Assembly (NCBI GenBank): GCA_002335605.1
Contig: BEDY01000004.1
Location: 62,001 to 126,000, forward strand
DNA from: Prillingera fragicola
Taxonomy: Eukaryota; Basidiomycota; Tremellomycetes; Trichosporonales; Trichosporonaceae
DNA length: 64,000 nt
Reading direction: 5' to 3'
Shown here piece by piece: positions 60,052-63,693 of the stretch. The notes beneath the pieces were generated by a model that did not search any database, was not told the origin of the DNA, and worked only from the letters and a program-made list of their open reading frames with translations. Each line of letters starts with the position of its first letter. The first letter of the stretch is position 1. The translations under genes were made by a program, and so were the position numbers.

Positions 60052-60132
60052 GGCATTGTGGCGGAGTGGTTAACGCGATTGACTCGAAATCAATTTCCTT
60101 CGGGAGCGCATGTTCGAATCATGCCAATGTCG
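60052..60132 (+). tRNA. tRNA-Ser (anticodon CGA)
   Basis: A type II tRNA of 81 bases without intron. The acceptor strands GGCATTG and CAATGTC pair with one G-U, the D arm is GCGGAGTGGTTAACGC, and the anticodon arm is ATTGA-CTCGAAA-TCAAT with CGA at positions 34-36. A long variable arm (TCC-TTCG-GGA) marks tRNA-Ser. The T arm GCATG-TTCGAAT-CATGC contains a canonical B box. The discriminator base is G, as serine tRNAs need. No run of four or more T follows before the next tRNA. Confidence 0.95.
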
Positions 60133-60154: not shown

Positions 60155-60267
60155 GGCAACGTGGCGGAGTGGTTAACGCGGTTGACTAGAACTACTGTCC
60201 AGCTCAAAGGTGGCTAGTTTGGTATCAACTTCCTTCGGGAGCGCATGTTCGAGTCATGCCGTTGTCG
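60155..60267 (+). tRNA. tRNA-Ser (anticodon AGA) with a 32-base intron
   Basis: Acceptor strands GGCAACG and CGTTGTC pair. The anticodon arm GTTGA-CTAGAA is interrupted after position 37 by a 32-base intron at 60192-60223, then continues A-TCAAC. The intron contains CTAGT, which can pair with ACTAG of the anticodon region, as in other nuclear pre-tRNAs. Long variable arm and T arm are as in the neighbouring copies. The spliced length is 81 bases. It begins only 22 bases after the preceding tRNA. A T4 run follows at 60299-60302. Confidence 0.93.
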
Positions 60268-60469: not shown

Positions 60470-60550
60470 GGCATCTTGGCGGAGTGGTTAACGCGGTTGA
60501 CTAGAAATCAACTTCCTTCGGGAGCGTATGTTCGAATCATGCAGATGTCG
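60470..60550 (+). tRNA. tRNA-Ser (anticodon AGA), intronless
   Basis: Acceptor strands GGCATCT and AGATGTC pair with one G-U; anticodon arm GTTGA-CTAGAAA-TCAAC has no intron; variable arm and T arm match the other two genes except a GTATG T stem (one G-U). G discriminator. Followed at 60556 by T6. Confidence 0.95.
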
Positions 60551-60555
60551 CATTC

Positions 60556-60807: not shown

Positions 60808-63693
60808 CTACGAGTGGACCCACTCGCCGCCAAGCTCGGCACTCCACTGCGCAAGCCCCTCTGGCCCGGCAGCCTTGAGCGTGAGCCCGAGCTGGGCAGC
60901 GCGCTCGCCGCGGTGGATACCGAGCCCGGGCCCGCCGAGGCGGGTCAAGTGTGGCTCGGCGCCGAGGTCGCGGAGCTCGGAAAGGAGACGCTCGAGCTTG
61001 TCCTCGGGGAACGCGTCGGGGATGAGCGTCACTGCGCAGCCGCCGCCGCCCGCGCCCGTGAGCTTGGTCGTGAGGCTGAACGGCTCCGCGGCCGTGGCGG
61101 CCACGACGGCCTCGAGGGACGGGTGCGAGACGCCGAGGGTCCGGAGGTGTACGTGGTTGGCCCGCATGAGGGTCTCGAGCCGGTTGACAAAGGCGTCGCG
61201 GTCCACGCCCGTCGTGCCGTCCAGCAAGGCGCGGGCTTCGTCGGCGATCGACTGGATGTCTTCCAGGATTGGCTCGACGACGGCAGGCTCGGCGGCCTTT
61301 TTGGCTGCCACGCCCGCGACGAGGGACTTGGTGTCGCGGGGAACACGGGTGTTGGTGAGCAAGAGGCGGATCGAGTCGAAACCCCTGATACCGTCGAGGC
61401 CGCCCTCCTTGCCGTTAACGGCGCGGGTGAAGGCGACGGCGCCGCCGCGGACGGCAACGGCGTTGTCAATGCCCGAAGGGTTGCCGTGCAGGACCTTTTC
61501 AGCGAGGAAGGCCCAGGCGTCCACCAGGTCGACATCGGGAGCGTGCAGAGAGGTCGCGGGGACGTTGACATAGTCGTTGGCGACGAGCAGGGTCGAAGCG
61601 ACGCATGCGCTAAACGCAGCCGACGAGCCGAGACCGGCGCCGATCGGGAGGTTGGCCGAGACGGTGAGCGTGACAGTCAGGCTGGTGGTTAGCAACCCGC
61701 TGGCAATGGCACAACTTACGCATTCTTAAAAGAGCGAGTCATGGCCATGTAGACATAGAGGAAGGCGACGCTGGCGCTCTGGCCGACCTTTGTGGGCTTG
61801 TCGGCGGCGACAAGAGTCTCGATGGAGCGGAGGAGCACAGGGTCGAGTTGGGCGTCAGCAGTCGAGCCGTCACCCTCGGGGACGACCGCCCAGGGAAGAG
61901 TGGCCAGGTCCCAGGCGTGGTCGACCTCGAGGTCGGGAGCGGACAGAGCGACCTTGGCATCCTCGCGAGCCGAGAGCACACCGTAGCACCGGAGGTTGAG
62001 ACTAGTTGCGATAGCAGTCTGCATTTTGAAGACAACAATGAATATGTGGAGTTTATGTGAGATTTTTACTTCTGAGTATCTATTGGCTATCACCCACCAC
62101 ACCGTGCACGACTGCGTGCTCGCCAAAGAGAATGACCTTGCCAGGTGCGCTGACGACAATGTCGTCCTCGATCGTCTGGCTGTCGCCGTTGCCGAGAGTA
62201 AGACCCTTCTTGACGCCCTCGACGAGGCCGTCGTCACCGCCAGGCCTGCGGAACGCACGCGCACGCTCAGTAGCCCATTTCTTGGGGTCCTGGTCGTAGA
62301 GAATCGAGAGCTTCTCGGATGAGAGAAGGTCAGGGGCCACGGCGGGAACAATGGCACCGGCAATGACAAGAGCGCGCTCGAGGTCGTCGAGCAAGTCGCG
62401 GGGGTCCTCGATACCGATGCAGAGGCGGATGAGGTTCTCGGGGAGACCGCGCTCGGCACGGACAGCGGCAGAGATCGAGGCGTGCCTAAGGATGGTTAGT
62501 GACAACTCTTTCAGCAAGGGGCAAAGACTACTCACGACATGAGACAGGGCATCGAGATGAGCGAGTTGACAGCTCCAAACGACACACTGACACCCCAGAG
62601 GCGGGCGGCGGAAACAATGCGCTCCGACAGCTGCTTGTCGCCAGTGACAAACGACATGACAGCACCGGCACCGCTGGCCTGCTTCCAGTGAATGTCGGCC
62701 TTGGGGTGGCTCTTGAGACCGGGGTAGTGGACGAGGAAGTCGAGCTGGTCGAGATAGTTGGCCACGAGCTGGGCGTTGGCCTCCTGCTTGTCCATGCGAA
62801 GCGCAAGAGTCTTGACACCACGCATAAGAAGGAACGAGTCGAAAGGTGCGAGACCTGATCCGCCGGCGTTGACGTGCCAAGCAACGTCTTTGGCGAGCTC
62901 GGGCTGACCAACAGCAATGATACCAGCCATAAGGTCGTGGTGACCAGAGAGATACTTGGTTCCCGAGTCGTAGACAATGTCGGCACCGTACTCGAGGGGG
63001 CGCTGGAGGTAGGGCGACATCATGGTGTTGTCGACGACAATGATGGCGTTGGGGTAGGCAGTGTGGACAGCGGCAGAGATCTCTGCAATGTCGGCAATCT
63101 TGAGCAAAGGGTTGGTAGGCGACTCGAGTAGGACCATCTTGACCCTAGGTTTTGTCAGCGCAAGTTGTTGACGAGCATTAAGCAACTCACTTGTTTCCAG
63201 GCTCGAGATGCGGCCTCAAAGCGTCGACATTCGTAGTGTCCACATGACGGACGTCGACACCGCCATGGCTCTTGGCGTAGGTAAGAAGACGGTTGGTGCC
63301 GCCATACAAGTCGTCACCGGCAAGGACAGTCTCTCCGGGCCTGACAAGACGCAGAATAACGTCCAAGCAGGTCATGCCAGTCGAGAGGGCAAACGCCGCC
63401 GATGCACTGTAAAGACGCGCGAGGTGAGACTCGAGTCCGCCACGGGTAGGGTTACCACTGCGAGTGTAGTCGTAGGGTCCTTCCATGCCCTTGAAGGTCG
63501 CGGTCTGGAAGATTGGTGTGCTCGAGGCGCCATACTGGTTCTGGCTCGTGTCGGTCGCGACGACCTGGGTAGCGAAACGCCACTTTTGGGCGCGAGCCTC
63601 AAAGGAGTCGCCGTCCGAGGGAGACTTTGAGTCGTAGACCGAGGTCGCGAGTGATGACTCGCCGGGGGAGGAAGGGGCGGCAGACGACGACAT
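60808..63693 (-). CDS. Fused cystathionine beta-lyase / mevalonate kinase
   Basis: Five exons on the minus strand (63693-63191, 63144-62536, 62485-62098, 62018-61720, 61681-60808) form one frame of 890 residues. Residues 1 to about 415 are a PLP enzyme of the Cys/Met family: GASSTPIFQTATF, YDYTRSGNPTR, DSGTKYLSGHHD with the PLP lysine at about 231, and LIRLCIGIEDPRDLLDDLE. The best fit is cystathionine beta-lyase, which makes homocysteine; cystathionine gamma-synthase is possible. A charged linker (about 416-478) leads directly into mevalonate kinase: VVSAPGKVILFGEHAVVHGV, then PIGAGLGSSAA (GHMP ATP loop) and TKLTGAGGGGCAV. Mevalonate kinase makes phosphomevalonate in sterol synthesis. The junction lies inside exon 3 with no stop and no Met. 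ATG 63693 has a good context; an in-frame ATG at 63942 would add 83 basic residues. Confidence 0.92.

What the first reader, a model, noticed from the sequence alone, without database searches (positions are those of the whole stretch)
60808..63693. Single gene fusing cystathionine beta-lyase to mevalonate kinase
Seen: exon 3 (62485-62098) encodes the C-terminal end of a Cys/Met-family PLP enzyme (LIRLCIGIEDPRDLL) and, about 75 codons later with no stop, the first motif of mevalonate kinase (APGKVILFGEHAVVHG). Both enzymes are otherwise complete with their catalytic motifs. No Met codon lies between the lyase core and the kinase motif, so a separate kinase could not start normally. Known: in the fungi I know these are separate enzymes, in sulfur amino-acid synthesis and the sterol pathway. 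Inference: tandem neighbours fused by loss of the lyase stop and the kinase start. The product would couple homocysteine supply to isoprenoid flux or force the kinase into the lyase's compartment. I recall no description of this fusion.
Basis: partly seen in the sequence, partly recalled or inferred. Interest (0 to 1): 0.92.

Follow-up and report, generated by a model that had tools for sequence, protein, structure and literature searches.

The report
Lyase-kinase fusion enzyme of basidiomycete fungi
One gene carries both a methionine-pathway lyase and the sterol-pathway enzyme mevalonate kinase, each with its catalytic residues in place; the fusion was already reported in 2012 in many basidiomycete fungi, and it would likely yield one two-function protein whose advantage appears untested.

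Summary
Five predicted exons on the minus strand (63693 to 60808) give one 890-residue frame, 93.8 kDa, without internal stop. Residues 41-413 are a eukaryotic-type cystathionine beta-lyase (TIGR01329, 527.5 bits, cut-off 487.5); residues 478-858 align with mevalonate kinase 1kvk. All 14 catalytic or motif positions checked are kept. The genome search finds no other mevalonate kinase above the family cut-off and no rival beta-lyase. It is not new: Liu et al. 2012 (PMC3342255) called it metC-MVK in 12 basidiomycetes, and PMC3468542 (2012) reported the same fusion with no stand-alone kinase. Of the 120 best matches, 119 are two-domain proteins over 850 residues; on sampled trees both halves separate once from stand-alone enzymes. 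Added here: catalytic conservation across 120 sequences; no Met between the halves in 81 of 120; apparent split genes that prove to be truncated models; a predicted ordered linker module in a close relative. What joining the enzymes achieves remains untested.

The parts
63191..63693 (-). [quoted passage not shown]
   Evidence: PF01053 from residue 42
62536..63144 (-). exon 2: lyase core with the PLP lysine (K231)
62098..62485 (-). exon 3: end of the lyase, linker (about residues 414-477) and mevalonate kinase motif 1 (APGKVILFGEH, K487)
62019..62097 (-). intron 3, phase 0, 79 nt; begins GTGGGT and reads an in-frame TAG after 15 nt if retained
   Evidence: 7 other gene models turn into unrelated tails at the same residue
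61720..62018 (-). exon 4: kinase N-terminal region
60808..61681 (-). exon 5: kinase motifs 2 and 3, catalytic D672, stop codon

Best explanation
The gene's predicted exons encode, in one uninterrupted reading frame, a complete cystathionine beta-lyase joined by a linker to a complete mevalonate kinase, and it is likely translated as a single protein that performs both reactions independently. Shown: the frame, both sets of catalytic residues, no second mevalonate kinase above the family cut-off in this genome, and the same fusion in many other basidiomycetes. Inferred: the fusion arose once, in or before the common ancestor of the sampled basidiomycete classes, by read-through from the lyase's last exon into the kinase's first coding exon. 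The halves share no substrate, so it probably works by fixed co-expression rather than channelling. The most sensible benefit is that one regulatory input sets both the isoprenoid backbone and the homocysteine, methionine and S-adenosylmethionine supply that C-24 methylation of ergosterol needs (pathway knowledge, untested). In Ganoderma lingzhi the gene called mevalonate kinase is listed as a target of the sterol regulator SREBP (PMC9810662, passages); if that gene is the fusion, the lyase comes under sterol control with it.
For: Gene model and mass. Lyase: PF01053, TIGR01329 over cut-off, solved homologue 1ibj. Kinase: 1kvk; TIGR00549 pieces together 187.6 bits, cut-off 163.05. Catalytic positions: 13 of 14 invariant in 120 of 120 sequences, the last kept in 119 of 120. 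Own genome: no other kinase over the cut-off; best rival lyase locus 279.5 bits against the 487.5 cut-off, with gamma-type families ranking above beta-lyase. 119 two-domain proteins over 850 residues among 120 listed matches. Each half's tree puts 23 fused rows on one side of one branch, SH-aLRT 99. No Met between lyase R391 and kinase K487 in 81 of 120. A transcript-derived unigene with both domains is reported in Pleurocybella porrigens (PMC3720577, passages).
Against: No protein or transcript of this species was available. 39 of 120 fusions have a Met between the domains, 16 of them within 25 residues of the kinase lysine, so internal starts are not excluded everywhere. The linker is poorly conserved overall, which could allow cleavage. 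The published surveys note exceptions: L. bicolor and Postia placenta. In the genome scan this gene's own exon pieces, taken singly, also fall below the TIGR01329 cut-off; only the spliced protein passes. The AlphaFold model of the relative has pTM 0.52, and its residues 40-79, which hold two lyase catalytic positions, are below pLDDT 50. The sterol-methylation link is reasoning only. The trees are quick ones of 44 and 43 rows that I chose.
Confidence: 0.85

Rival explanations
1. The gene is translated as a fusion that is then cut in the linker, so that the cell holds a separate lyase and kinase.
For: The linker is 35-106 residues and variable, and residues 456-473 of the modelled relative have pLDDT under 50. 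In a Phaffia gel study the four peptides reported for mevalonate kinase spanned the kinase domain (PMC3224108, passages).
Against: I did not search for cleavage signals. Four peptides are too few to tell. The frame stays joined in 119 of 119 relatives over 850 residues, which cleavage would not need.
Confidence: 0.08
2. Splicing is regulated: keeping intron 3 makes a lyase-only protein of 505 residues, and removing it makes the two-function enzyme.
For: Retention reads an in-frame TAG after 15 nt of the intron. The annotated Vanrija humicola protein (506 aa, P0241) and six other models turn into unrelated tails at the same residue.
Against: A retained-intron transcript would usually be degraded (general knowledge). 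No RNA data were available.
Confidence: 0.05
3. Artefact: two adjacent genes merged by the reader or the assembly.
For: Stand-alone lyase and kinase are what the half-protein searches list from Ascomycota and Mucoromycota.
Against: The join lies inside a single exon with no stop, and it recurs in 119 relatives; four papers report it in other species.
Confidence: 0.02

Closest known systems
metC-MVK fusion of Basidiomycota (Liu et al. 2012, PMC3342255)
   Same: Cystathionine beta-lyase N-terminal, mevalonate kinase C-terminal, about 886 aa on average, the only protein assigned to either enzyme in the genomes they analysed; here 890 aa.
   Different: No difference established. Their 16-residue insertion in the kinase of 7 of 12 species was not tested here.
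STR3 orthologues with a C-terminal mevalonate kinase domain (PMC3468542, 2012)
   Same: Same fusion, in all Basidiomycota they examined except Postia placenta; they found no stand-alone mevalonate kinase in basidiomycetes.
   Different: They describe the extra region as weakly similar to mevalonate kinase (30-40% identity); here the kinase catalytic positions are shown to be kept.
Stand-alone STR3-type lyases and ERG12-type kinases of other fungi
   Same: Same two enzyme families.
   Different: Separate proteins; the kinase has its own start codon.

Membership tests
basidiomycete metC-MVK (STR3-mevalonate kinase) fusion | N-terminal eukaryotic cystathionine beta-lyase | tested here: met
   TIGR01329 527.5 bits, cut-off 487.5, residues 41-413
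basidiomycete metC-MVK (STR3-mevalonate kinase) fusion | C-terminal mevalonate kinase | tested here: met
   1kvk 2.1e-71; TIGR00549 pieces 187.6 bits together, cut-off 163.05
basidiomycete metC-MVK (STR3-mevalonate kinase) fusion | one reading frame without a stop between the halves | tested here: met
   the junction lies inside exon 3
basidiomycete metC-MVK (STR3-mevalonate kinase) fusion | only mevalonate kinase in the genome | tested here: met
   no other place over the TIGR00549 cut-off; exon-by-exon search
basidiomycete metC-MVK (STR3-mevalonate kinase) fusion | only protein assigned to cystathionine beta-lyase | tested here: met
   four other Cys/Met loci scanned, none over the TIGR01329 cut-off and none with it as best family; this gene's exon pieces score highest in the genome but singly stay under the cut-off
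basidiomycete metC-MVK (STR3-mevalonate kinase) fusion | common descent with other fusions | tested here: met
   23 fused rows on one side of one branch in both trees, SH-aLRT 99; chosen rows, quick method
basidiomycete metC-MVK (STR3-mevalonate kinase) fusion | 16-residue insertion in the kinase half (7 of 12 species in the paper) | not tested
   the sequence of the insertion was not seen
cystathionine beta-lyase | PLP lysine and the conserved tyrosines, arginines and aspartate of the active site | tested here: met
   K231, Y76, Y130, R78, R391, D206, S228 and T230 invariant in 120 of 120; roles recalled
mevalonate kinase | K13, S146, E193, D204, T243 (numbering of 1kvk) and the GAGGGG loop | tested here: met
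   K487, S620, E661, D672, T717 in 120 of 120; loop A810 in 119 of 120; roles recalled
both enzymes | catalytic activity of the fusion product | not testable with these tools
   no assay

The most novel reading that the evidence does not exclude
The intron just after kinase motif 1, at the same residue in Tremellomycetes and Agaricomycetes, is a metabolic splice switch: keeping it yields a finished lyase alone, removing it yields lyase plus kinase, so that a cell can uncouple methionine supply from sterol synthesis within one gene.
Probability: 0.05. Interest if true: 0.6.

Novelty: already known. Interest (0 to 1): 0.25.

Why it matters
Two otherwise unlinked housekeeping pathways are held in one polypeptide across several classes of a fungal phylum, with both active sites kept. 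That argues for a selective reason, which the papers I read do not test. Where the fusion is the only mevalonate kinase, as here and in the published surveys, removing the lyase gene would remove that kinase too. For this window the finding is a correct rediscovery of a published fusion.

Tried and rejected
Tandem-gene or annotation artefact: rejected because the junction lies inside one exon and recurs in 119 relatives. Split genes in other basidiomycetes: among the rows new (P0241-P0359), 12 of 119 carry kinase motif 1 downstream of the lyase, as does P0113. They include every row that I recognise by name as a basidiomycete (Vanrija, Phlebia, Pleurotus, Mycena, Rhizoctonia, Ceratobasidium), so these are cut-short models of the fusion. 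Among the 120 kinase rows, the rows named as basidiomycetes (Fibroporia, Candolleomyces, Ceratobasidium, Serendipita, Phaffia) are pieces of the fusion: four bear the lyase domain, and the Phaffia one lacks kinase motif 1 and matches part of the fused Phaffia protein P0037. Some unnamed rows with kinase motif 1 and no lyase domain (for example P0153, P0156, P0161, P0168) cannot be assigned to a group. All this covers only the 120 best rows of each search.

Peroxisomal targeting: 0 of 120 fusions end in a PTS1-like tripeptide. A review table lists the Phaffia ERG12 product as cytoplasmic (PMC8420053, passages); its basis was not seen. Four of the 119 aligned relatives (P0019, P0028, P0052, P0112) are labelled partial by their source but were kept. 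In one search my motif patterns were too strict and only 25 sequences were aligned; replaced. In one search exon limits were off by one; corrected. I saw no name of Ustilaginomycotina, rusts or Wallemia among the 120 listed of 628 hits, so their state was not established. Three weak PF01053 matches in the genome (one on C8, read as a 5-aminolevulinate-synthase-like frame, and two on C6 and C1, not read) were not pursued. A paper search on a human MVK intron variant found nothing, so no animal intron is used as evidence. A search for erg12 with Cryptococcus and cystathionine found no paper. PMC8058980 and PMC11121823 (passages) say nothing on the fusion in what I saw. The one hit was seen as a listing only.

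Full report
What is there. On the minus strand of the window, five predicted exons with GT-AG introns of 46, 50, 79 and 38 nt join into one frame of 890 codons and a stop. Residues 41-413 match cystathionine beta-lyase above the curated cut-off; the best solved relative is 1ibj at 3e-110. Residues 478-858 match mevalonate kinase 1kvk at 2.1e-71. The junction lies inside exon 3. The last methionine before the kinase motif is residue 370 and the next is 591, so no kinase with its first motif could start at an AUG of this frame.

Both halves look active. I aligned the window protein with the 119 of the 120 listed relatives that exceed 850 residues; the one left out, P0113 (501 aa), is a cut-short model. 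Eight lyase positions and five kinase positions are invariant in 120 of 120; a sixth kinase position is kept in 119 of 120. The roles of these positions are recalled from the families, not taken from a call. The lyase half is more conserved than the kinase half (mean share of the commonest residue 0.84 for residues 36-415, 0.72 for 481-860).

The linker. Between the conserved lyase end and the kinase it measures 35-106 residues, median 45, over 120 sequences. It is poorly conserved, apart from an arginine (R451 in the window) present in 97% and a leucine (L458) in 92%. About a fifth of the sequences have residues in a stretch around the window's 424-444; among the examples that I printed, the named ones with it are Tremellomycetes. 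In the AlphaFold model of the relative P0001 (Cutaneotrichosporon cavernicola), helices at 427-436 and 438-446 lie in blocks of mean pLDDT 86-94, followed by a low-confidence hinge at 456-473. Overall pTM is 0.52, so the placement of the halves relative to each other is not determined. Residues 1-32, 40-79 and 355-372 of the lyase half are also below pLDDT 50. This may reflect modelling a single chain of an enzyme that, in its family, is a tetramer with shared active sites (recalled).

Copies in this genome. A search of the 20.2 Mb genome with TIGR00549 finds only this kinase above the cut-off; the two weaker matches read as a galactokinase-like and a phosphomevalonate-kinase-like protein, by my own reading of their sequences. 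With TIGR01329, pieces of this gene score highest (304.5 bits for the largest), but no single piece in the genome reaches the cut-off, this gene's included; the spliced protein does. Of four other Cys/Met loci scanned, C11 passes the O-acetylhomoserine sulfhydrylase cut-off. C2 (279.5 bits for TIGR01329) ranks first with cystathionine gamma-type families but passes none of their cut-offs, C7 is a weaker gamma-type relative, and C6 is divergent. The loci were scanned as single open frames, so their scores may be low.

Distribution. The 120 best of 628 matches to the whole protein are, where named (109 of 120), from genera that I know as Basidiomycota: Tremellomycetes, Dacrymycetes, Agaricomycetes and Microbotryomycetes (class assignments are mine, not looked up). 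Searches with each half alone, which admit only shorter proteins, list no intact stand-alone kinase or lyase under a basidiomycete name among their 120 best; named stand-alone ones are from Ascomycota, Mucoromycota, other fungi and, for the kinase, animals. In quick trees of 44 kinase and 43 lyase rows that I selected, the 23 fused rows lie on one side of a single branch with SH-aLRT 99 in both, and the window's nearest row is P0001 in both. This fits one origin; it does not prove it.

The intron. Seven listed models, among them the annotated Vanrija humicola protein (P0241) and a Pleurotus one (P0250), continue to HAVVHGV and then run into unrelated tails. This is what reading into an intron at the window's intron-3 position would give, so the intron position is likely shared between Tremellomycetes and Agaricomycetes. 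Whether its retention is ever used is unknown; annotation error is far more likely.

What is known. Liu et al. 2012 (PMC3342255; section 10 read, and passages) describe metC-MVK in 12 basidiomycetes, not in L. bicolor, and place its origin in the ancestor of Basidiomycota. PMC3468542 (2012; passages) reports the same in all Basidiomycota examined except Postia placenta, with no stand-alone kinase, and notes that the two genes do not appear clustered in ascomycetes. PMC4129116 (2014; passages) and PMC3720577 (2013; passages) add two mushrooms, the latter from a unigene of mycelium. PMC7396576 (passages) notes that mevalonate kinase was the one enzyme of the pathway that KEGG did not predict in Ustilago maydis, which would fit a fusion filed as a lyase, but this is my inference. 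In what I saw of these papers, none tests the function of the joining. My paper searches were made, in one open-licence library.

Mechanism. The two reactions share no substrate or product, so channelling is not expected. I favour fixed co-expression: one promoter supplies mevalonate kinase and the lyase that feeds homocysteine, methionine and S-adenosylmethionine, and ergosterol synthesis uses S-adenosylmethionine for C-24 methylation (pathway knowledge). The Ganoderma lingzhi SREBP study lists its mevalonate kinase gene g3941 among the targets found by DAP-seq, with higher expression on SREBP overexpression (PMC9810662, passages). The passages do not mention a lyase fusion; that g3941 is the fusion is inferred from the other Ganoderma entries.

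Verdict. The remaining question, what selection keeps the two enzymes joined, is real but was already posed in 2012.

Noticed in passing
60052-60132, 60155-60267, 60470-60551: Three clustered tRNA matches on the plus strand just downstream of the fusion gene: two tRNA-Ser (CGA and AGA anticodons) and a third, longer Rfam tRNA match that may hold an intron and that ARAGORN did not call.
   Followed up: partly
62019-62097: Intron 3 ends ATGCAG, with the ATG in frame with the kinase; an unnamed relative (P0123) is modelled as starting at the matching MQ, which lacks kinase motif 1.
   Followed up: no
P0241 (Vanrija humicola), P0189 and P0037 (Phaffia rhodozyma): Public records of this fusion are cut short or differ at their ends: P0241 turns off at the intron-3 position, P0189 lacks the lyase and kinase motif 1, and P0037 and P0189 differ in their C-terminal tails.
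   Followed up: partly
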